Assembly: GCF_009917525.1 (NCBI RefSeq)
Contig: NZ_QZDU01000003.1
Location: forward strand, 62,001 to 126,000
Origin: Acutalibacter sp. 1XD8-36
Lineage (GTDB): Bacteria > Bacillota > Clostridia > Oscillospirales > Acutalibacteraceae
DNA: 64,000 nucleotides
Direction of reading: 5' to 3'
The notes beneath the pieces are model-generated. The model did no database searches, had not been told where the DNA came from, and was given only the letters and a program-made list of their open reading frames with translations. Each line of letters begins with the position of its first letter. The stretch's first letter is position 1. Position numbers and translations under genes: made by a program. Shown here one piece after another: positions 1,297 to 22,926 of this stretch.

Positions 1297-1325
1297 TTGC
1301 CCTCATGATAAATTTATGATATAAT
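1297..1325 (+). promoter_or_regulatory. Sigma-A promoter of the hydrogen-sensor cluster
   Basis: TTGCCC (1297-1302), a 17-bp spacer and an extended -10 TGATATAAT ending at 1325. It lies 41 bp upstream of the first DRTGG gene, and I saw no other promoter before the PHP gene. Confidence 0.75.
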
Positions 1326-1365
1326 GTTGGATACAGACCCTAAGTGAATATTAGGAGGTAAAACT

Positions 1366-1716
1366 ATGCAGGTAAAAGACATCGTAGACATACTTAAATG
1401 CCAGATACTGGTGGAGGGGGACCTTAATCAGGAGGTGAAAACGGCCTGCGGCAGCGACATGATGAGCGACGTGCTGGCCTTTGTCAAGGACCAGTCGGTG
1501 CTGCTGACAGGGCTTATGAACCCCCAGGTGGTGCGCACGGCGGAGATGATGGATATGCACTGCATCGTGTTCGTAAGGGGCAAGCCGGTAAACCAGCAGG
1601 TGCTGGATTTGGCGGAGATGAAGGATATGACGGTTTTAAGCTCACCCTACCGCATGTTCACCGCCTGCGGGCTGTTGTTTGAAAACGGTCTGAGAGGAGG
1701 CTGTGACATATCATGA
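1366..1716 (+). CDS. DRTGG-domain protein
   Basis: A 116-residue single-domain protein resembling the DRTGG domain, found in PTA-type and CBS-DRTGG proteins and also as a stand-alone protein beside clostridial [FeFe] hydrogenases. The visible core is a glycine/valine-rich segment ending SVLLTGLMNPQVVRTAEM, followed by CIVFVRGKPV. No catalytic motif is apparent, so a ligand-binding or scaffold role is inferred from the family. ATG with an AGGAGG RBS at 1353-1358; its stop overlaps the next start (ATGA), so translation is probably coupled. A second DRTGG-like protein lies three genes downstream. Confidence 0.8.
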   Translation: MQVKDIVDILKCQILVEGDLNQEVKTACGSDMMSDVLAFVKDQSVLLTGLMNPQVVRTAEMMDMHCIVFVRGKPVNQQVLDLAEMKDMTVLSSPYRMFTACGLLFENGLRGGCDIS

Positions 1717-2144
1717 GTATGCTGCATCTTGAGTACCAGGTGCCCGGCGACGACTTTACCCGGGCGGGAGAGGCCTCCGGGGACGTGAAGCACAAGCTGA
1801 AAAAGCTGGGCTATGAGCCGGACGCCATACGCAGGGTCGCTATTGCAATGTATGAAGGGGAGATAAACCTTGTGATACATGGCGGCGGCGGGGAGGCCGT
1901 GGTGGACGTGGACCCGGACAGGGTGGACATAGCCCTTATAGACCAGGGCCCGGGTATCCCCGACGTGGAGCAGGCTATGCAGGCGGGCTGGTCCACGGCC
2001 CCTGACAACGTGCGGGCCCTGGGCTTCGGCGCGGGGATGGGCCTGCCGAATATGAAGAAATATACCGACGGGATGACCATTGATTCAACGGTGGGCGTCG
2101 GCACTACGGTTAAGATGACGGTGATTCCCGGAAGAAAGGGGTGA
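1713..2144 (+). CDS. Anti-sigma-factor-type ATP-binding protein (RsbW/RsbT-like)
   Basis: A 143-residue stand-alone GHKL ATPase domain without transmembrane or His-phosphotransfer segments. The N-box (EGEINLVIH, about residues 49-57), G1 box (DQGPGIPD) and G2 box (FGAGMGLPNMKK) are complete, so it should bind ATP. Members of this family are serine kinases that act on anti-anti-sigma proteins. No sigma factor or STAS partner is nearby. Its position, translationally coupled between the DRTGG gene and the hydrogenase-like gene, suggests it passes on the sensor's state. That is inference. Confidence 0.85.
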   Translation: MSMLHLEYQVPGDDFTRAGEASGDVKHKLKKLGYEPDAIRRVAIAMYEGEINLVIHGGGGEAVVDVDPDRVDIALIDQGPGIPDVEQAMQAGWSTAPDNVRALGFGAGMGLPNMKKYTDGMTIDSTVGVGTTVKMTVIPGRKG

Positions 2145-2150
2145 AACCCG

Positions 2151-3494
2151 GTGAAGGAGTTCTTTCACTCGGTCACGCTGCATGAGGACAAATGCGTGGG
2201 CTGCACCAACTGCGTGAAGCGCTGCCCGACTGAGGCCATACGCATACGAAACGGCAAGGCCTTTATTGCCTCGGAGCGCTGCATAGACTGCGGCGAGTGC
2301 ATACGTATCTGCCCTCACCACGCGAAAAGGGCCAGGTACACCCACCTGGACGAGCTGGATAAATTTACCTATAAGATAGCCCTGCCCGCCCCGGCACTTT
2401 ATGGGCAGTTCAACAATCTGGACGACATAGACTATGTGCTCACGGGGCTCAAGCAGATGGGATTTGACCAGGTATACGAGGTCTCGAGAGCCGCGGAGCT
2501 GGTGAGCGAGGCCACCCGGAAGATGATGTACAATGCTGAGACGGGGGCCAACCTGCCAAGGCCTGTGATAAGCTCGGCCTGCCCGGCGGTGGTAAGGCTT
2601 ATAAGGGTCAGGTTCCCTGACTTATGCGACCATGTGCTGCCTTTAAAGTCGCCTATGGAGACAGCGGCGGGGATGGCAAAAAGGGAGGCCGTGGAGAAGA
2701 CCGGGCTCCCTGAGGAGCAGATAGGCTGTTTCTTTATAACACCCTGTCCCGCGAAGGTCACGGACATAAAAATGCCCCTGGGCATGGAGAAATCCTGTGT
2801 TGACGGAGCCATAGCCATAAGCGAGGCATTTCCCCAGCTCTCACATAAGATGGACCACCTGGAGTGCATAGAGCCCATAGCTAACTCCGGCATTATCGGG
2901 GTGGGCTGGAGCACCAGCGGCGGTGAGTCGGCGGCCCTGCTCAACGAGAAATATCTGGCGGCCGACGGCATAGAGAATGTGATAAGGGTGCTGGAGGAGG
3001 TCGAGGACGAGCGCATAGGGGACCTGGACTTCATCGAGCTCAACGCCTGCGCAGGAGGCTGTGTGGGAGGGGTGCTCTGTGTTGAAAACCCCTATGTTGC
3101 CAAAGCGAGGATACAGCGCCTGAGGAAATACCTGCCGGTGAGCCAGAACCATTTGGCGGGCGGGCCTGTGCCCACTGAAATGGAGTGGGAGGGCGAGCTG
3201 GAGTTTTCCAACGTCATGACCCTCTCCTCGGATTTGGGCGAGGCCATGCGGATGATGGTGGAGATAGACAATATCGAGGAGGAGCTGCCGGGGCTGGACT
3301 GCGGGGCCTGCGGCGCGCCTACCTGCCGGGCCTTTGCCGAGGACGTGGTAAAGGGCGCGTGCAAGAAAACTGACTGTGTGTTCGTCTACCGCAAGCAGAT
3401 GCAGAAGGTGGCGAGCACTATATCCCAGCTTGAGGGGGGCCTTGGCTGGCACCCAGGAGACGGGAATAACGACGGTGAGGAGGATGGAAAATGA
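2151..3494 (+). CDS. Sensory-type [FeFe]-hydrogenase homologue with C-terminal Fe-S domain
   Basis: 447 residues from a GTG start (RBS AAAGGGG). Domains in order: two N-terminal [4Fe-4S] ferredoxin motifs (CVGCTNCVKRCP, CIDCGECIRICP, about residues 17-55), a [FeFe]-hydrogenase large-subunit core (about 75-345), and a C-terminal Fe-S motif CGACGAPTC (about 385-405). The H-cluster loops are altered. Loop 1 is SSACPA, with Ala at the usual proton-transfer Cys. Loop 2 is TPCPAK, with Thr for Met. Loop 3 is NACAGGCVGG. The cluster-ligand cysteines remain. These changes match sensory (HydS-type) enzymes rather than production enzymes. No PAS domain is present, so output probably goes through neighbouring proteins. 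Confidence 0.88.
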   Translation: MKEFFHSVTLHEDKCVGCTNCVKRCPTEAIRIRNGKAFIASERCIDCGECIRICPHHAKRARYTHLDELDKFTYKIALPAPALYGQFNNLDDIDYVLTGLKQMGFDQVYEVSRAAELVSEATRKMMYNAETGANLPRPVISSACPAVVRLIRVRFPDLCDHVLPLKSPMETAAGMAKREAVEKTGLPEEQIGCFFITPCPAKVTDIKMPLGMEKSCVDGAIAISEAFPQLSHKMDHLECIEPIANSGIIGVGWSTSGGESAALLNEKYLAADGIENVIRVLEEVEDERIGDLDFIELNACAGGCVGGVLCVENPYVAKARIQRLRKYLPVSQNHLAGGPVPTEMEWEGELEFSNVMTLSSDLGEAMRMMVEIDNIEEELPGLDCGACGAPTCRAFAEDVVKGACKKTDCVFVYRKQMQKVASTISQLEGGLGWHPGDGNNDGEEDGK

Positions 3495-3823
3495 CGGTCA
3501 AAGAGATGGCCGGGGCTCTCGGCTGGAAGCTTCTGGCCGGTGAGGACGGCCAGGACAATGAGGCAGACGGCTGCTATGTGGGAGACCTTCTCAGCTGGGT
3601 AATGGGCCGGGCCCAGGCGGGGAATGTCTGGCTGACGGTGATGGGGAATCTAAACGCCATAGCGGTGGCGGCCCTGGCGGACACCAGCTGCATAGTGCTC
3701 TGTGAGGATTCGGCCCTGGACGCCGACGCCAAAAACCGGGCCGATATGCAGGGCATACCGGTGTACGGCTGCGGGCCAAACCTGTATGACACCGCCGTGC
3801 AGGTCCACGGCCTGCTGAAATGA
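3491..3823 (+). CDS. Second DRTGG-like domain protein
   Basis: A 110-residue protein distantly similar in layout to the first DRTGG protein: an N-terminal YVGDLLSWVM segment, then GNVWLTVMGNLNAIAVAALA and an IVLCEDSAL strand. The start overlaps the hydrogenase-like stop (ATGA) and its own stop overlaps the PHP start (ATGA), so the three genes form a coupled block. I infer a small regulatory or scaffold protein, perhaps pairing with the first DRTGG protein. No catalytic motif seen. Confidence 0.7.
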   Translation: MTVKEMAGALGWKLLAGEDGQDNEADGCYVGDLLSWVMGRAQAGNVWLTVMGNLNAIAVAALADTSCIVLCEDSALDADAKNRADMQGIPVYGCGPNLYDTAVQVHGLLK

Positions 3824-4539
3824 GCGCATATTCCTACGACTTCCATATACACTCCTGCCTGTCCCCCTGCGGCGACAACGATATGACCCCCAATAATATT
3901 GTGGGCATGGCGGCAATCTCGGGCCTTGAGATAATTGCCATTACCGACCATAACACCTGCAGGAACGCCCCGGCGGTGTTAAAGGCGGCTGAGGAGGCGG
4001 GGATTACCGCTATCCCGGGCATGGAGCTGTGCACCAGCGAGGAGGCGCATATTGTCTGCCTTTTTGAGACCTTAGAGGGTGCTATGGAGTTCGACAGGTA
4101 CATATATGATAATATGCCCCATATAAAAAATAAGCCGGAGATTTTCGGGGAGCAGAGGATTCTGGACAAAAACGACGGGCTTATTGGGACTCTTGACGAT
4201 TTGCTGCTGGTGGCCTCGTACATCGGCGCGGACGAGGTGAAGGCCCTCTGTGAGAAATACGGCGGCACAGCTTTCCCTGCCCACGTGGACAGGGACTCGT
4301 ACAGCCTCACCGCGGCCCTTGGAAGCATACCGCCGGAGGGAGGGTATACCTTCGCGGAGGTCACCAGGGAGGCGGATTTAGCAGAGGTGGCGGGGATGTA
4401 CCCGGAGCTGCGCTCCATGGGGATAGTGCGGGACTCTGACAGCCACTACCTGGATACGCTGGCGACCTCTGTGCCGCACAGTATAGAGCTGCCGGAGAAA
4501 TCCGTGGGGGCGGTGCTCAGACTACTATCAGGAAAATGA
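3820..4539 (+). CDS. PHP-domain phosphoesterase
   Basis: 239 residues. Metal-binding PHP motifs are visible: DFHIHSCLSPCG (residues 5-16), ITDHNTC (about 46-52), a GMELCTSEEAH segment (about 67-77), PAHVDR (about 156) and DSDSH (about 204-208). The family hydrolyses phosphate esters or (oligo)nucleotides using two or three metal ions; the substrate here is unknown. As last gene of the sensor cluster it could remove a nucleotide or phospho-signal, which is inference. ATGA overlap with the previous gene. Confidence 0.85.
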   Translation: MSAYSYDFHIHSCLSPCGDNDMTPNNIVGMAAISGLEIIAITDHNTCRNAPAVLKAAEEAGITAIPGMELCTSEEAHIVCLFETLEGAMEFDRYIYDNMPHIKNKPEIFGEQRILDKNDGLIGTLDDLLLVASYIGADEVKALCEKYGGTAFPAHVDRDSYSLTAALGSIPPEGGYTFAEVTREADLAEVAGMYPELRSMGIVRDSDSHYLDTLATSVPHSIELPEKSVGAVLRLLSGK

Positions 4540-4565
4540 TATCGATAGAATATATCGATATTTTG
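4539..4565 (+). promoter_or_regulatory. Perfect inverted repeat between sensor cluster and hydrogenase operon
   Basis: ATATCGATA (4539-4547), a 5-base spacer, then TATCGATAT (4553-4561), starting at the PHP stop codon and followed by TTTT. It could be a weak intrinsic terminator or a dimeric repressor operator. The AT-rich 140 bp that follow (4562-4704) must hold the hnd promoter, but no clear -35/-10 pair is visible. Confidence 0.5.
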
Positions 4566-4704: not shown

Positions 4705-5202
4705 ATGCAAAAACGTATCAGCACTCTGCCCTTCCACGACACCCCCGAGCAGGCCCAGAAGCTTGAGGAGGTCATAGCCAGCCTGCAGGGCCAGGCGGGG
4801 GCTGTCATGCCCGCGCTGCACCAGGCCCAGGACATCTACGGCTACCTGCCCATGGAGGTGCAGAAAAAGATTGCCGACGGACTGGGGGTCTCCCTGGAGG
4901 AGGTCTACGGCGTTTCCACGTTCTACTCACAGTTCAGCCTTACCCCCAAGGGGCGCAACCACATCTCCGTCTGCCTTGGCACGGCCTGCTATGTTAAGGG
5001 CTCGGACAAGGTGCTGGACAGGATAGTTGAGAAGCTGCATATCCAGCCCGAGGAGTGCACCGAGGACGGGCTCTTCTCACTCACCGCCTGCCGCTGCATA
5101 GGCGCATGCGGCCTGGCCCCGGTTATGATGATAAACGAGGACGTCTACGGCCGCCTGGCCCCTGAGGACGTGGACGGCATCCTTGAGAAGTATGCGGAGT
5201 AG
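4705..5202 (+). CDS. hndA: NADH-/NADP-linked [FeFe]-hydrogenase subunit, NuoE-like
   Basis: 165 residues from the ATG at 4705 (aaggaag RBS). An upstream in-frame TTG would add 16 residues but has no RBS. Thioredoxin-like [2Fe-2S] subunit: the cluster Cys motif begins CLGTACYVKG (about residues 88-97) and continues CRCIGACG (about 129-136). In the tetrameric Hnd / trimeric HydABC complexes this subunit carries electrons next to the flavin subunit. First gene of the hnd operon. It is HydC in Thermotoga nomenclature. Confidence 0.93.
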   Translation: MQKRISTLPFHDTPEQAQKLEEVIASLQGQAGAVMPALHQAQDIYGYLPMEVQKKIADGLGVSLEEVYGVSTFYSQFSLTPKGRNHISVCLGTACYVKGSDKVLDRIVEKLHIQPEECTEDGLFSLTACRCIGACGLAPVMMINEDVYGRLAPEDVDGILEKYAE

Positions 5203-5227: not shown

Positions 5228-5818
5228 ATGCGTGAGCTTTCACTAAACGTAATGGACATCGCCCAGAACTCCATCTCTGCGGGGGCAAGCCTTATCACCG
5301 TCACCGTGGAGGAGGACGAGGACTTAGACGAGCTCAGCATCTCCATTGGCGATAACGGCCGGGGGATGACCCCGGAGCAGGTGGAGCATGTTACGGACCC
5401 ATTTTTTACCACCCGGACTACCCGGAGCGTCGGGCTTGGGGTGCCGCTTTTCAAGATGGAGGCGGAGATGACCGGCGGGCGGTTTTCCATAGAGTCCACT
5501 GTAGGCGTGGGTACTACTACCACCGCCGTGTTTAAGCCCTCAAGCGTTGACATGATACCCCTGGGGGACATCAACGGCACCATAAGCATGCTGGTGATGA
5601 TGAACCCGGACCTTGACTTCCTCTATACCAGGGGCTATAGGCCCCGGGGGGAGGAGCGCAGGGAGTTTGCCCTTGACACCAGGGAGCTTAGGACGGTCCT
5701 TGGGGAGGACGTGCCGCTGAACCTGCCGGACGTTACCCAGTGGGTGAACGACTATCTCAGTGAGAACACAAGCGAGCTTTTGACTAAAGACACTCAGGAA
5801 GGAGCAAGAGATATATGA
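5228..5818 (+). CDS. GHKL ATP-binding protein within the hydrogenase operon
   Basis: 196 residues. The N-terminal 110 residues are a HATPase_c domain: N-box NVMDIAQNSI, G1 box DNGRGMTP, an F-box-like TDPFFTTR, and G2 box RSVGLGVPLFK. The C-terminal 80 residues are unassigned. There is no sensor, membrane or His-acceptor domain, so it is not a complete histidine kinase. Stand-alone ATPases of this type are known between the NuoE-like and flavin subunits of clostridial hydrogenase operons; their role is not established. It is the second orphan GHKL ATPase in this 8-kb region. ATG with AGGAAGG RBS; its stop overlaps hndB. Confidence 0.85.
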   Translation: MRELSLNVMDIAQNSISAGASLITVTVEEDEDLDELSISIGDNGRGMTPEQVEHVTDPFFTTRTTRSVGLGVPLFKMEAEMTGGRFSIESTVGVGTTTTAVFKPSSVDMIPLGDINGTISMLVMMNPDLDFLYTRGYRPRGEERREFALDTRELRTVLGEDVPLNLPDVTQWVNDYLSENTSELLTKDTQEGARDI

Positions 5819-6195
5819 AATCCTTAGCAGAACTTCAGGCTATCCGGGACAAGGCCCGGGCCGCCGTTAATATCCGCGAGAACGCCGAGGCAGAGACCCG
5901 GGTGCTGGTGGGCATGGCAACCTGCGGAATCGCCGCCGGAGCCCGCCCCGTGCTCAACGCCTTTGTTGAGGAAGTGAACAAGCGCGGCCTCAGGGACACC
6001 ATGGTGACCCAGACCGGCTGCATAGGCATCTGCCAGTACGAGCCTGTGGTGGAGATAATCACCCCCGGCAAGGAGAAGGTCACCTATGTTAAGATGACCG
6101 CCGAGAAGGCCGTGCGCGTTGTCAACGACCACCTGGTCAACGGCAACGTGGTTACAGAGTATACCATCGGCGCCAACGCAATCGGCGCGAAGTAA
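5815..6195 (+). CDS. hndB: [2Fe-2S] thioredoxin-like hydrogenase subunit
   Basis: 126 residues, resembling HndB of NADP-reducing hydrogenases. The cysteine set is MATCGIAAGA (about residue 40), then TGCIGICQYEP (about 68-78), consistent with a thioredoxin-fold [2Fe-2S] ferredoxin. It starts within the previous stop (ATGA) and ends 30 bp before hndC. Its presence distinguishes a four-subunit Hnd-type layout from a trimeric HydABC. Confidence 0.88.
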   Translation: MKSLAELQAIRDKARAAVNIRENAEAETRVLVGMATCGIAAGARPVLNAFVEEVNKRGLRDTMVTQTGCIGICQYEPVVEIITPGKEKVTYVKMTAEKAVRVVNDHLVNGNVVTEYTIGANAIGAK

Positions 6196-6225: not shown

Positions 6226-8016
6226 ATGTTTCGATCCAATGTGCTGGTTTGCGGCGGCACCGGCTGCACCTCCTCAAACAGCGAGCTGATTATTGATAAG
6301 CTCAACGAGGAGATAAAGGCCCAGGGCCTGGACAAGGAAGTAAACGTAATCCGCACCGGCTGCTTTGGCCTGTGCGCGCTTGGCCCCATCATGGTGGTCT
6401 ATCCCGAGGGCGCGTTCTATAGCCGCGTCACCGTTGAGGATGTGCCGGAGATAGTTTCCGAGCACCTTTTGAAGGGCCGTATCGTCACAAGGCTCCTGTA
6501 TCAGGAGACCGTGGTGGACGAGAACACCACCAAGTCCCTTAATGAGACCACCTTCTATGCAAAGCAGATGCGCATAGCCCTTCGCAACTGCGGCGTTATA
6601 AACCCCGAGCTCATCGACGAGTACATCGCCCAGGACGGCTACGCGGCCCTTGGCAAGGTGCTCACCGAGATGACCCCCCAGCAGGTAATAGATACCATGC
6701 TGGCCTCCGGCCTTCGCGGGCGCGGCGGCGCGGGCTTCCCCACGGGCCTCAAGTGGAAGTTTGCGGCGGCAAACCAGGCCGACCAGAAGTACGCCTGCTG
6801 CAACGCCGACGAGGGCGACCCGGGCGCGTTCATGGACCGCTCTGTTTTGGAGGGCGACCCCCACAGCGTGCTGGAGGCCATGGCAATAGCAGGCTACGCC
6901 ATCGGCGCTTCCCAAGGCTATATCTACATCCGCGCCGAGTACCCCATCGCCGTGAAGCGCCTGCAGATAGCCATTAACCAGGCCAGGGAGTACGGGCTCT
7001 TGGGCAAGAATATCTTCGATTCCGGCTTTGACTTTGATATAGACATCCGCCTGGGCGCGGGCGCATTTGTGTGCGGCGAGGAGACAGCGCTTATGACCTC
7101 CATCGAGGGCAAGCGCGGCGAGCCCAGGGTGCGGCCTCCCTTCCCGGCCTTAAAGGGCCTGTTCGGAAAGCCCACCGTGCTCAACAACGTGGAGACCTAC
7201 GCCAATATCCCCCAGATTATCTTAAAGGGCGCGGACTGGTTCAAGTCCATCGGCACCGAGAAGTCCCCGGGCACCAAGGTCTTCGCTCTGGGCGGCAAGA
7301 TTACTAATACCGGCCTCGTTGAGGTGCCCATGGGCACTACCCTCCGCGAAGTAGTTGAGGACATCGGCGGCGGAGTACCCGGCGGGCACACCTTCAAGGC
7401 TGCCCAGACCGGCGGCCCCTCCGGCGGCTGTATCCCGGCCTCCCTTATCGACACTCCCATCGACTACGACAACCTTATAGCCATAGGCTCCATGATGGGC
7501 TCCGGCGGACTGATAGTTATGGACGAGACCACCTGTATGGTGGATATCGCCAAGTTCTTCCTGGAGTTCACCGTTGACGAGAGCTGCGGCAAGTGCACCC
7601 CCTGCCGTGTGGGTACAAAACGCCTTTTGGAGATACTGGACAAGATAACCTCCGGCAAGGGCACTATGGAGGACATAGACAAGCTGGAGGAGCTCTGCTA
7701 CTACATCAAGGAGAACTCCCTGTGCGGCCTGGGCCAGACTGCCCCCAACCCGGTGCTCTCCACCCTGAAGTATTTCCGGGACGAGTATGTGGCCCATGTC
7801 ACCGAGCACCGCTGCCCTGCCGGGGCCTGCAAGGCTCTGACCAACTTCCATATCGAGGCCGAAAAGTGCAAGGGCTGCACCCTCTGCGCCCGTAACTGCC
7901 CTGTTGGGGCTATCTCCGGCAAGGTCAAGGAGCCTCATGTGATTGATACCAGCAAGTGCATCAAGTGCGGCGTGTGTATGGAGAAGTGCAAGTTCCAGGC
8001 CGTCGTGAAGAAATAA
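6226..8016 (+). CDS. hndC: NAD(P)H-oxidising flavin subunit of the bifurcating hydrogenase (NuoF-like)
   Basis: 596 residues from ATG 6226 (GGAGG, 9-nt spacing). Domains in order: an N-terminal [2Fe-2S] thioredoxin-like region (VCGGTGCTSSN, then TGCFGLCALGP), the NuoF core with GRGGAGFPTGLKWKF (FMN/NAD region, about residues 167-181) and CNADEGDPGAF, SLBB region, the [4Fe-4S] motif ESCGKCTPCRVGT (about 452-464), and two C-terminal [4Fe-4S] ferredoxin motifs (CKGCTLCARNCP, CIKCGVCMEKC). It binds FMN and NAD(P) and is thought to be the bifurcation site. Equivalent to HydB. Confidence 0.95.
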   Translation: MFRSNVLVCGGTGCTSSNSELIIDKLNEEIKAQGLDKEVNVIRTGCFGLCALGPIMVVYPEGAFYSRVTVEDVPEIVSEHLLKGRIVTRLLYQETVVDENTTKSLNETTFYAKQMRIALRNCGVINPELIDEYIAQDGYAALGKVLTEMTPQQVIDTMLASGLRGRGGAGFPTGLKWKFAAANQADQKYACCNADEGDPGAFMDRSVLEGDPHSVLEAMAIAGYAIGASQGYIYIRAEYPIAVKRLQIAINQAREYGLLGKNIFDSGFDFDIDIRLGAGAFVCGEETALMTSIEGKRGEPRVRPPFPALKGLFGKPTVLNNVETYANIPQIILKGADWFKSIGTEKSPGTKVFALGGKITNTGLVEVPMGTTLREVVEDIGGGVPGGHTFKAAQTGGPSGGCIPASLIDTPIDYDNLIAIGSMMGSGGLIVMDETTCMVDIAKFFLEFTVDESCGKCTPCRVGTKRLLEILDKITSGKGTMEDIDKLEELCYYIKENSLCGLGQTAPNPVLSTLKYFRDEYVAHVTEHRCPAGACKALTNFHIEAEKCKGCTLCARNCPVGAISGKVKEPHVIDTSKCIKCGVCMEKCKFQAVVKK

Positions 8017-8031
8017 GGAGGAACACCGAAT

Positions 8032-9774
8032 ATGGATATGGTCAACGTAAAGATAAACGGCGTGGACTATCAGGTGCCGAAGGATTCAACAATCCTTGAA
8101 GCCGCCCGCTATGCCGGGGTGGACATCCCCACGCTGTGCTACCTGAAGGATATCAACCAGATAGGCGCCTGCCGTATGTGCATGGTGGAGGTAAAGGGGG
8201 CCCGCTCCCTCTGCGCCGCCTGTGTGTACCCGGTGAACGAGGGCATGGAGGTGTTCACCAATTCCCCCAAGGTCCAGGAGTCCAGGAAGATGACCCTGGA
8301 GCTGCTGCTCAGTGTCCACGAGCGCAAGTGCCTGACCTGCGAGCGCAGCGGCAACTGCGAGCTGCAGAAGCTCTGCGCGGACATGGGCATTGAGGAGGAC
8401 AGCCGCTTTGAGGGTGCGCTGCCCGCGGGCAATAAGGACCTTACCACACCTTACCTGGAGCGCAACAACGCCAAGTGCGTGCTCTGCCGCAGGTGTGTGG
8501 CGGCCTGCCAGAACCAGCATGTTTCAGTTATCGGCGCGAATAACCGCGGCTTCGACACAGAGATAGGCTGTGCCTTTGAGCAGCCCCTGAATAACGTGGC
8601 CTGCGTAGCCTGCGGACAGTGCATTGTAAGCTGCCCCACCGGCGCGCTGACTGAGCACGACAATACCCACGATGTAATCGAGGCCATCAACGACCCCGAG
8701 AAGATAGTGATAGTCCAGACCGCCCCCGCCGTGCGCGCGGCATTGGGCGAGGAGTTCGGCCTACCCATCGGCACCAATGTCGAGGGTAAGATGGCTGCGG
8801 CTCTCAGAAGGCTGGGCTTTGACAAGGTGTTCGACACCGACTTCGGCGCGGACATGACTATTATGGAGGAGGCCCACGAGTTCATCGGCAGGGTCAAGAA
8901 CGGCGGCGTGCTGCCCATGATAACCTCCTGCTCACCGGGCTGGATTAAGTTCTGCGAGCACTACTATCCCGACCTTATCGACCATCTGTCCAGCTGCAAG
9001 TCCCCCCAGAACATGACCGGCGCCCTGATAAAGACCTGGTACGCCGAGAAGGAGGGCATTGACCCCCAGAAGATAGTCTCCGTCTCCGTCATGCCCTGTG
9101 TGGCGAAGAAGTTCGAGATTCAGAGGGACGATGAGAACGCGGCAGGTATGCCCGACGTGGACATAAGCCTTACCACCCGCGAGCTGGCCCGCCTTATCAA
9201 GAAGGCACAGCTGAACTTTAACGCCCTGCCCGACGAGAAGTTTGACGAGGCTATGGGCGAGTCCACCGGCGCTGCGGTTATCTTCGGCGCTACCGGCGGC
9301 GTTATGGAGGCGGCCCTTAGGACCGCTGCCGACGTGCTCACCGGCGAGAGCCAGGAGTCCGTAGAGTATAAGGAGATTCGCGGTACCCAGGGCATTAAGG
9401 AGGCCGTGTACAATGTTGCCGGCATGGATGTGAAGGTGGCTGTTGTCAGTGGCCTGAAGAATGCCAACGAGATACTGAAGAAGGTCAAGGCCGGTGAAGC
9501 TGACTACCAGTTCATCGAGATTATGTGTTGCCCCGGCGGATGTGTCAACGGCGGCGGTCAGCCTGTGCGCAGTGCCAATGACTGGGCATATAACGACATC
9601 AAGGCGCTCAGGGCAAAGGCCCTCTACGACCAGGACGCAAACATGCCTCTGCGCAAGTCCCACGATAACCCCGTGGTGAAGAAGTGCTATGAGGAGTTCC
9701 TGGGCGAGCCCGGCAGCCATAAGGCCCACGAGATACTGCACACCACCTATGTGAAGCGCGGGAACAAGTTCTAA
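8032..9774 (+). CDS. hndD: Catalytic [FeFe]-hydrogenase subunit
   Basis: 580 residues, equivalent to HydA of bifurcating enzymes. Order: N-terminal [2Fe-2S] domain (CRMCMVEVKGARSLCAACV), His-Cys3 [4Fe-4S] region (HERKCLTCERSGNCELQ), two ferredoxin [4Fe-4S] motifs (CVLCRRCVAACQ, CVACGQCIVSCP), H-cluster domain with loops TSCSPGW (about residue 298), MPCVAKKFE (about 354) and EIMCCPGGCVNGGGQP (about 496), then the small-subunit-like tail. This is a production-type H-cluster, in contrast to the sensory homologue upstream. RBS aaggagg; last gene of the operon. Confidence 0.96.
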   Translation: MDMVNVKINGVDYQVPKDSTILEAARYAGVDIPTLCYLKDINQIGACRMCMVEVKGARSLCAACVYPVNEGMEVFTNSPKVQESRKMTLELLLSVHERKCLTCERSGNCELQKLCADMGIEEDSRFEGALPAGNKDLTTPYLERNNAKCVLCRRCVAACQNQHVSVIGANNRGFDTEIGCAFEQPLNNVACVACGQCIVSCPTGALTEHDNTHDVIEAINDPEKIVIVQTAPAVRAALGEEFGLPIGTNVEGKMAAALRRLGFDKVFDTDFGADMTIMEEAHEFIGRVKNGGVLPMITSCSPGWIKFCEHYYPDLIDHLSSCKSPQNMTGALIKTWYAEKEGIDPQKIVSVSVMPCVAKKFEIQRDDENAAGMPDVDISLTTRELARLIKKAQLNFNALPDEKFDEAMGESTGAAVIFGATGGVMEAALRTAADVLTGESQESVEYKEIRGTQGIKEAVYNVAGMDVKVAVVSGLKNANEILKKVKAGEADYQFIEIMCCPGGCVNGGGQPVRSANDWAYNDIKALRAKALYDQDANMPLRKSHDNPVVKKCYEEFLGEPGSHKAHEILHTTYVKRGNKF

Positions 9775-22864: not shown

Positions 22865-22897
22865 AGTATATGCCCTCCGGGATAATTGCTTGTATAT

Positions 22898-22926
22898 ATT
22901 TTAGCATAAAAGAAAAATAAAGTCAA
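22898..22926 (-). promoter_or_regulatory. Sigma-A promoter of the DUF1848 gene
   Basis: Minus-strand TTGACT (22921-22926), 17-bp spacer, TAAAAT (22898-22903). Confidence 0.75.

What the first reader, a model, noticed from the sequence alone, without database searches (positions are those of the whole stretch)
1297..4565. Compact putative H2-sensing module: two DRTGG proteins, GHKL ATPase, inactive-type hydrogenase, PHP hydrolase
Five genes under one promoter, three junctions with ATGA overlap, encode a hydrogenase homologue whose proton-transfer Cys is Ala (SSAC) and whose loop-2 Met is Thr, as known for HydS-type sensors. Unlike most HydS proteins it lacks a PAS domain. Signal output would have to pass to the RsbW/T-like ATPase, the DRTGG pair and/or the PHP phosphoesterase, possibly using a small nucleotide signal. 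Established: HydS-like genes near hydrogenase operons in Ruminococcus. New here, as far as I can see: the full five-part cassette as a signalling unit.
Basis: partly seen in the sequence, partly recalled or inferred. Interest (0 to 1): 0.85.

Follow-up and report, generated by a model that had tools for sequence, protein, structure and literature searches.

The report
Putative hydrogen-sensing cassette of anaerobes
A run of genes found side by side in many anaerobic bacteria appears to couple a slow, sensor-type hydrogenase to two ATP-binding proteins, a pair of small adaptor proteins and a phosphatase-like enzyme, which could explain how such cells notice hydrogen gas and adjust the enzymes that balance their electrons.

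Summary
In detail: five genes at 1366-4539, three ATGA overlaps, promoter-like site upstream. The hydrogenase homologue is a group D (M2e) [FeFe] hydrogenase: no PAS, C-terminal Cx2Cx4Cx16C, proton-transfer Cys replaced by Ala, loop-2 Met by Thr. How group D signals is called open in the literature. The cassette is widespread: DRTGG-ATPase-hydrogenase-DRTGG-PHP is complete in 60 of 62 nearer and 54 of 74 phylum-wide loci with enough flank; of 398 genomes, 157 of 159 with group D carry this ATPase. A sixth part, the 196-aa GHKL ATPase inside the hnd operon, belongs to it. Sixteen open frames fuse neighbours (DRTGG-ATPase, ATPase-hydrogenase, hydrogenase-DRTGG, PHP-second ATPase). The hydrogenase is exchangeable: related cassettes have CBS domains on the ATPase instead. 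The neighbouring complex varies (Hnd, formate dehydrogenase type, Rnf), which argues against an Hnd-specific assembly kit. Best reading: an H2/redox-input transducer with an ATP-dependent switch. That it signals, and its chemistry, are inferred, not shown. Partial forerunners are in print. Interest 0.76.

The parts
1297..1325 (+). promoter-like site TTGCCC-17-TATAAT with extended TG
   Evidence: consensus match only
1366..1716 (+). DRTGG protein 1 (116 aa), motif CGSDMMSDVLAF
   Evidence: PF07085 34.4 bits; AF2 model, pLDDT 85.7, matches DRTGG structure 2ioj, TMq 0.86
1713..2144 (+). SpoIIAB-like GHKL ATPase / candidate Ser kinase (143 aa), E48xxxN52, DxGxG, GFGAGMGL
   Evidence: (TIGR01925 54.9 bits, below its cut-off of 135)
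2151..3494 (+). group D (M2e) [FeFe] hydrogenase homologue (447 aa), candidate H2 sensor
3491..3823 (+). DRTGG protein 2 (110 aa), motif GDLLSWVM
   Evidence: (below cut-off)
3820..4539 (+). PHP-domain metallohydrolase (239 aa) with conserved His/Glu/Asp set
4538..4562 (+). AT-rich inverted repeat after the PHP gene (10 pairs, loop 5); weak terminator or attenuator candidate
   Evidence: z -1.05, not significant
4705..5202 (+). HndA-like [2Fe-2S] thioredoxin-fold subunit (neighbouring enzyme, not part of the transducer)
5228..5818 (+). second GHKL ATPase (196 aa, HK2), sixth part of the module though placed inside the hnd operon
   Evidence: (PHP-HK2 fusions), 56, 76/88
5815..6195 (+). HndB-like [2Fe-2S] subunit (Pfam match below cut-off)
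6226..8016 (+). HndC-like subunit (name from sequence and place; not scanned itself)
   Evidence: homologues called
8032..9774 (+). HndD, group A type [FeFe] hydrogenase

Best explanation
A six-part signal-transduction module. Input: a group D [FeFe] hydrogenase binds H2 at a slow H-cluster and passes the redox change to its C-terminal [4Fe-4S] cluster. Core: a SpoIIAB-like GHKL ATPase, in contact with the hydrogenase and with DRTGG protein 1, acts as an ATP-dependent switch (most likely a Ser/Thr kinase on one or both DRTGG proteins); DRTGG protein 2 links the hydrogenase to the PHP hydrolase, which would reverse the modification; the second GHKL ATPase, which works with PHP, carries the output to the neighbouring electron-balancing complex (here Hnd; elsewhere a formate dehydrogenase type or Rnf) or to its regulator. 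Shown here: gene content, order, co-occurrence, fusions, conserved active-site residues, exchange of the sensor. Inferred: that H2 is the signal, that it is signalling at all, every contact, which protein is phosphorylated, what PHP cleaves, and the direction of the response.
For: Same-strand order DRTGG-ATPase-hydrogenase-DRTGG-PHP (inserted genes allowed): complete in 60 of 62 genome-contig loci and 54 of 74 phylum-draw loci with enough flank; of the 2 misses in the first set, L104 has a clear IS200-type transposase beside the hydrogenase, L078 one below cut-off. Of 398 phylum genomes, 157 of 159 with group D also have this ATPase family; 12 have the ATPase only. Sixteen open frames in 158 loci fuse neighbours: 8 DRTGG-ATPase, 2 ATPase-hydrogenase, 2 hydrogenase-DRTGG, 4 PHP-HK2. 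Sensor exchange: DRTGG-ATPase-DRTGG-PHP-HK2 without group D, CBS pair on the ATPase in those scanned. In other lineages the ATPase-hydrogenase pair stands beside an OmpR-type regulator, a two-component pair or a PAS-GGDEF protein. Boxes of ATPase, PHP and HK2 and the H-cluster Cys conserved. Asp31, Ser34 and Thr48 identical in 35 of 35 DRTGG sequences of the set plus window; in the larger set Thr48 is 94% in DRTGG 1. Group D features met. HydF present in the genome.
Against: No DNA-binding protein in the cassette here and no Rex-type palindrome near it. No STAS or PP2C domain among the ten window proteins scanned, five of them outside the cassette, so the classical kinase substrate was not seen. 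D31/S34 may be structural (S34 lies at a helix start in the model). Twenty of 74 phylum-draw loci lack at least one part within the distances used. Fusions of adjacent genes and co-inheritance show association, not contact or signalling; distance correlations within the cassette (0.51-0.70) are not clearly above those with HndC (0.42-0.65). No H2 response was or could be tested.
Confidence: 0.6

Rival explanations
1. Nucleotide-messenger route: DRTGG proteins (and CBS pairs in the swapped form) bind an adenine-type nucleotide, PHP hydrolyses it, and the ATPases are allosteric switches, not protein kinases.
For: PHP matches among NCBIfam include nucleotide/RNA phosphoesterases (3',5'-nucleoside bisphosphate phosphatase, RNase RNM), beside TrlF and CehA/McbA families. 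The DRTGG model matches the regulatory CBS-DRTGG region of CBS-pyrophosphatase, and CBS and DRTGG come together again here. CBS-pyrophosphatase responds to AMP, ADP, ATP and diadenosine polyphosphates (start of abstract of PMC11172384, listing).
Against: PHP similarity is local (about 80 of 239 residues) and far below the family cut-offs. No synthetase for a messenger among the window proteins scanned. PHP was not found within reach in 16 of 76 phylum-draw loci.
Confidence: 0.2
2. Direct post-translational control or assembly of the neighbouring complex: the module binds Hnd/Rnf/formate dehydrogenase subunits and changes activity or assembly without a signalling chain to transcription.
For: The cassette, often with HK2 and an HndB-like gene, stands beside different complexes; no transcription factor in the cassette. 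In A. [quoted passage not shown] whether that hisK is an HK2 homologue was not tested.
Against: No HndC-type gene within the fetched stretch in 23 of 91 loci with 7 kb on each side, although a complex elsewhere could be served in trans. The ATPase-hydrogenase pair next to OmpR-type regulators and GGDEF proteins points to signalling.
Confidence: 0.2
3. Catalytic use: the group D enzyme evolves or oxidises H2 at low rate with ATP-driven electron delivery; the small proteins are its partners.
For: H-cluster Cys intact; TamHydS interconverts H+/H2 at low rate (PMC8163306, passages).
Against: Proton-transfer Cys absent in 157 of 157; H2 evolution of TamHydS a thousand-fold below group A (PMC11803613, abstract passage); exchange for CBS domains keeps the rest of the cassette.
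Confidence: 0.05

Closest known systems
Group D (M2e) [FeFe] hydrogenase TamHydS of Thermoanaerobacter mathranii
   Same: No PAS; two N-terminal and one C-terminal [4Fe-4S] motifs; C299 missing; Ser/Thr for M353; Glu pair; encoded upstream of a group A bifurcating hydrogenase; HK-like ATPase next door (PMC8163306 and PMC10407848, passages)
   Different: The paper names an ATPase and an AraC regulator as flanking genes; DRTGG and PHP are not in the passages seen. Whether Tam has the full cassette was not checked. Tam has Leu at M497, here Asn. One review files TamHydS under group C (PMC8924675, passage)
Group C HydS / HfsB (Ruminococcus albus, T. maritima, Thermoanaerobacterium)
   Same: H-domain plus C-terminal cluster motif, putative H2 sensor near a hydrogenase
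   Different: Group C carries PAS (or MCP/kinase) domains and lies outside the group D branch; this genome has one as well
SpoIIAB/RsbW partner-switching kinases
   Same: GHKL fold, ExxxN and G-boxes; best PDB sequence match is SpoIIAB (1til, 1.6e-7)
   Different: Far below the SpoIIAB family cut-off; no STAS or PP2C seen among the window proteins scanned; DRTGG and PHP in their place
CBS-pyrophosphatase regulatory region; HPr kinase N-domain
   Same: DRTGG fold; CBS + DRTGG combination in the swapped cassettes
   Different: Here stand-alone 110-116 aa proteins with an invariant D-x-x-S and without the GDR motif of AF1212
[quoted passage not shown] tengcongensis
   Same: Suggested H2/redox regulators of bifurcating hydrogenases (PMC3492117, passage)
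   Different: A remark; the parts, order, fusions, distribution and sensor exchange are not in the passage seen

Membership tests
group D (M2e) [FeFe] hydrogenase | no PAS domain | tested here: met
group D (M2e) [FeFe] hydrogenase | two N-terminal [4Fe-4S] motifs | tested here: met
   all eight Cys in 157 of 157
group D (M2e) [FeFe] hydrogenase | C-terminal Cx2Cx4Cx16C | tested here: met
   C384, C387, C392, C409 in 157 of 157
group D (M2e) [FeFe] hydrogenase | proton-transfer Cys C299 absent | tested here: met
   A 123, S 27, T 6, G 1, Cys 0 of 157
group D (M2e) [FeFe] hydrogenase | M353 replaced by Ser or Thr | tested here: met
   T 86, S 70, A 1 of 157
group D (M2e) [FeFe] hydrogenase | own proton path E252/E289 (TamHydS numbering, PMC10407848 passages) | tested here: met
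   E259 in 153 and E296 in 157 of 157; correspondence by residue offset only, TamHydS itself was not aligned
group D (M2e) [FeFe] hydrogenase | separate clade with TamHydS | tested here: inconclusive
   28 sequences form one branch, FastTree support 1.0, apart from the group A and group C sequences used; TamHydS not in the tree
group D (M2e) [FeFe] hydrogenase | low H2 turnover, H2-induced change | not testable with these tools
   needs protein
group C HydS | PAS or other signalling domain fused to the H-domain | tested here: not met
SpoIIAB/RsbW anti-sigma kinase | family score and STAS partner nearby | tested here: not met
   54.9 bits against cut-off 135; no STAS among ten window proteins scanned
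SpoIIAB/RsbW anti-sigma kinase | GHKL boxes with catalytic Glu | tested here: met
   E48, N52, DxGxG, GFGAGMGL at 95% or more of 155, except P80 inside the DxGxG stretch at 94%; role of E48 recalled from SpoIIAB
two-component histidine kinase | HisKA phospho-acceptor domain | tested here: not met
   neither ATPase has one
DRTGG domain | PF07085 over cut-off | tested here: inconclusive
   protein 1 over (34.4), protein 2 under (19.7; cut-off 25.2); model of protein 1 matches 2ioj
PHP hydrolase | metal-ligand set | tested here: met
   H9, H11, H44, E69, H77, H155, D207, H209 at 95% or more of 138; ligand roles recalled

The most novel reading that the evidence does not exclude
A previously undescribed class of bacterial signal transduction: a DRTGG-GHKL-DRTGG-PHP-GHKL core, neither two-component nor STAS partner switching, that accepts interchangeable inputs (group D hydrogenase for H2, CBS domains for adenine nucleotides, sometimes both) and tunes ferredoxin/NAD complexes (Hnd, formate dehydrogenase type, Rnf), widespread in the phylum of this genome.
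Probability: 0.42. Interest if true: 0.92.

Novelty: new variant of a known kind. Interest (0 to 1): 0.76.

Why it matters
How group D [FeFe] hydrogenases pass on a signal is stated as an open question (PMC8163306, passages). The cassette names candidate partners, likely contacts (from fusions) and the genes to delete, so the question becomes testable. Because it sits beside Hnd, a formate dehydrogenase type or Rnf, it may be a general control of H2 and redox balance in fermenting anaerobes.

Tried and rejected
Rejected: chance neighbourhood; group C HydS (no PAS; other branch); Hnd-specific maturase (no HndC-type gene in reach in 23 of 91 loci; Rnf and formate dehydrogenase-type neighbours); two-component system (no HisKA). 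Led nowhere: Rex-box searches near the cassette (none near; one single-mismatch site at 22890); hairpin 4538-4562 (z -1.05); distance correlations do not clearly separate the cassette from HndC; the HK2 fold search gives generic GHKL matches. First counts (107 of 139) were wrong because the best-scoring hydrogenase or a narrow distance missed parts; (109 of 136) used a clean group D profile but distances too narrow for loci with inserted genes; (up to 3.5 kb, 4.5 kb for PHP, same strand) replaces both. In one search a wrong frame of L002 was used; one search corrects it. Literature: nine searches. DRTGG plus hydrogenase gave one paper, seen only in the listing. Of ten papers (PMC8163306, PMC13104023, PMC8924675, PMC11837493, PMC6288185, PMC9304861, PMC10407848, PMC11803613, PMC5886521, PMC3492117) I saw passages, none whole. 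Greening 2016 (PMC4817680) is not held; Zheng 2014 and Calusinska 2010 were not looked up. Not done: distribution outside the phylum, TamHydS neighbourhood, complex modelling.
Full report
OBSERVATION. The five genes exist as described: DRTGG 1 (1366-1716), GHKL ATPase (1713-2144), hydrogenase homologue (2151-3494), DRTGG 2 (3491-3823), PHP (3820-4539). Three of four junctions are ATGA overlaps. A promoter-like site lies at 1297-1325. Pfam supports all five, the second DRTGG only below its cut-off. Downstream lie HndA, a second GHKL ATPase (HK2, 5228-5818), HndB, HndC and HndD; upstream, on the other strand, an aminotransferase gene.

WHAT THE HYDROGENASE IS. The passages seen of PMC8163306 describe group D (M2e): no PAS, C-terminal Cx2Cx4Cx16C, C299 not conserved, M353 replaced by Ser/Thr. 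All four hold here. Over 157 aligned sequences (156 loci and the window; L093 and L170 left out because their frame is split) the C299 position is A 123, S 27, T 6, G 1; the M353 position T 86, S 70, A 1; the four H-cluster Cys and the four C-terminal Cys are 157 of 157; the eight N-terminal Cys are 157 of 157, and the Glu residues that correspond by offset to the proton path E252/E289 of TamHydS (PMC10407848, passages) are 153 and 157 of 157. In a tree of 42 sequences, the 28 group D sequences form one branch, FastTree support 1.0, apart from HndD (group A) and the group C-type proteins; of the latter Pfam was run on L003 and L174 (PAS) and L152 (MCP), not on L150 and L161. TamHydS itself was not available to include; one review files it under group C (PMC8924675, passage). 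The genome also encodes a PAS-bearing group C HydS (C11:105453) and another hydrogenase (C11:108751) (Pfam), and the maturase HydF.

In it, of loci with enough contig, the ATPase lies upstream in 79 of 79, DRTGG 1 in 72 of 72, DRTGG 2 in 76 of 78, PHP in 66 of 68, all five in 60 of 62 (same strand, up to 3.5 kb, 4.5 kb for PHP). A few of these have longer gaps or genes inserted between parts (L063, L080, L145). The two misses are L104 (clear IS200-type transposase beside the hydrogenase) and L078 (one below cut-off). A phylum-wide draw of 398 genomes gave 160 with group D at E<=1e-60, own genome included; I fetched 80 regions, 78 on target, chosen mostly one per genus and mostly away from contig ends. 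There: ATPase 74 of 77, DRTGG 1 61 of 76, DRTGG 2 69 of 77, PHP 60 of 76, all five 54 of 74; 53 of 78 have all five plus HK2 within the fetched stretch. In the same draw the ATPase family (E<=1e-20) occurs in 157 of the 159 genomes with group D (own genome left out) and in 12 without (the test there ignores kinship). In one of the two exceptions, G224, the contig ends just upstream of one of its two group D copies (L184).

FUSIONS. Sixteen stop-free frames in 158 loci join neighbouring parts: DRTGG-ATPase in L150, L157, L158, L159, L163, L167, L181, L221; hydrogenase-DRTGG in L161, L174; ATPase-hydrogenase in L195, L207; PHP-HK2 in L188, L194, L196, L198. None was found in the nearer set. Together they chain the six parts except for the DRTGG 2-PHP step. 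The PHP-HK2 fusions, and loci where HK2 follows PHP without an HndC gene in reach (L190, L191, L213), make HK2 part of the module although here it lies inside the hnd operon.

SENSOR EXCHANGE. Twelve genomes have the ATPase without group D; seven were looked at, five were not. Four of the seven (G148, G175, G208, G377) have DRTGG-[315 to 327 aa ATPase]-DRTGG-PHP-HK2 with no group D hydrogenase; two further genomes that do have group D carry such a unit as well (L254 of G443, L255 of G361; ATPase 289 and 295 aa). A CBS-domain pair is shown by Pfam in L244, L245, L251 and L254; L246, L247, L250 and L255 have long frames too but were not scanned. In L245 and L246 DRTGG-[long ATPase] stands before an HndB-like gene and an Rnf operon (Pfam for L245 only). 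L155 has both: an ATPase with one CBS match, and the hydrogenase. In G294 the contig ends near the ATPase; in G396, and by gene sizes in G095, DRTGG-ATPase stands near cytochrome genes.

OTHER OUTPUTS. In some lineages the ATPase-hydrogenase pair stands with other signalling genes: an OmpR-type regulator and a Cache-GAF-PAS kinase upstream and an MCP-type hydrogenase downstream (Pfam for L152); the same sizes upstream in L156, where an OmpR-type regulator and a HAMP kinase follow; an OmpR-type regulator directly upstream in L199; a PAS-GGDEF protein directly downstream in L220 and one gene further in L154, both with DRTGG 1 kept. In four genomes of this kind (G184 = L171, G240 = L156, G314 = L160, G424 = L199) a DRTGG-DRTGG-PHP-HK2 unit is found elsewhere (L258-L261). 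The neighbouring enzyme also varies: an HndC-type subunit is in reach in 68 of 91 loci with 7 kb on each side, usually with HndD; in L188 and L202 the catalytic partner is a molybdopterin (formate dehydrogenase-type) protein, apparently with an in-frame stop; in L197 it is Rnf, and by gene sizes and order in L201 and L206. A Rex-type gene is directly upstream of DRTGG 1 in 9 of 147 group D loci with 2 kb upstream and in 7 of the 20 loci; in several more it lies elsewhere nearby (Pfam confirmed for L254 and L155 only). In this genome the one Rex gene found is not linked.

MECHANISM. Shown: ATPase boxes, HK2 boxes and PHP ligand set conserved, nearly all positions at 95% or more; in the DRTGG proteins D31 and S34 are invariant in 30 of 30 and, with T48, in 35 of 35 of another set (in the larger set T48 is 94% in DRTGG 1), while the solved DRTGG protein AF1212 lacks the D-x-x-S pattern in the alignment. 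The model of DRTGG 1 (pLDDT 85.7) matches DRTGG structures and the HPr kinase N-domain; S34 lies at a helix start in a less certain stretch. Inferred: the ATPase modifies or grips the DRTGG proteins according to the redox state of the sensor, PHP reverses it, HK2 carries the output. The kinase reading follows from likeness to SpoIIAB, but no STAS partner was seen. I put the signalling unit at 0.6 and the detailed Ser34 kinase/PHP phosphatase scheme at about 0.3.

KNOWN AND NEW. Known: group D as a putative sensor beside bifurcating hydrogenases with an ATPase next door, signal path open (PMC8163306, passages); a remark that phosphatases, kinases and PAS/PAC sensors lie upstream of such hydrogenases (PMC3492117, passage). 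Not found in nine searches of the held library: the cassette itself; most subscription papers are not held, so this is no proof of novelty.

Noticed in passing
own genome C11:105453-109671 (L003, L002): A PAS-bearing group C HydS and a 483-aa hydrogenase with SSCCP lie close together, in a layout that recalls HfsB/HfsD of Thermoanaerobacterium; the genome thus has two kinds of putative H2 sensor.
   Followed up: partly
window 8032-9774 (HndD): Loop 1 reads TSCSPGW in all 8 HndD sequences aligned, with Ser where TSCCP enzymes have the second Cys; the TSCCP motif and its roles are recalled.
   Followed up: no
L202 425-3133, L188 12439-15999: Group D cassettes beside an NADH-linked molybdopterin (formate dehydrogenase-type) enzyme whose gene is split by a stop, perhaps a selenocysteine codon (the codon was not looked at).
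   Followed up: partly
L197, L201, L206; L245, L246: Cassettes before an Rnf operon, with the hydrogenase or with a long (CBS in L245) ATPase.
   Followed up: partly
L147, L155, L157-L159, L163, L167, L181, L221, L250, L254, L255, L257, L259-L261: A Rex-type redox repressor gene directly upstream of DRTGG 1, a candidate output or co-regulator. PMC5886521 (passage) predicts Rex sites before hfsABCD and before an unnamed PHP-domain gene in T. saccharolyticum.
   Followed up: partly
L258-L261: DRTGG-DRTGG-PHP-HK2 without ATPase, with Rex upstream in three of the four; in L258 between valS- and folC-like genes and maf-radC-mreB.
   Followed up: partly
L257 6135-8061: A cassette that looks decayed: ATPase mostly gone, hydrogenase and PHP in broken frames, DRTGG genes and hnd intact.
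   Followed up: no
window 22890-22907: Single Rex-box-like site (one mismatch; 4 of 100 shuffles have one or more), far from the cassette.
   Followed up: no
L078, L104: IS200-type transposase beside the group D gene (clear in L104, below cut-off in L078), the two nearer loci without DRTGG 2 and PHP.
   Followed up: yes
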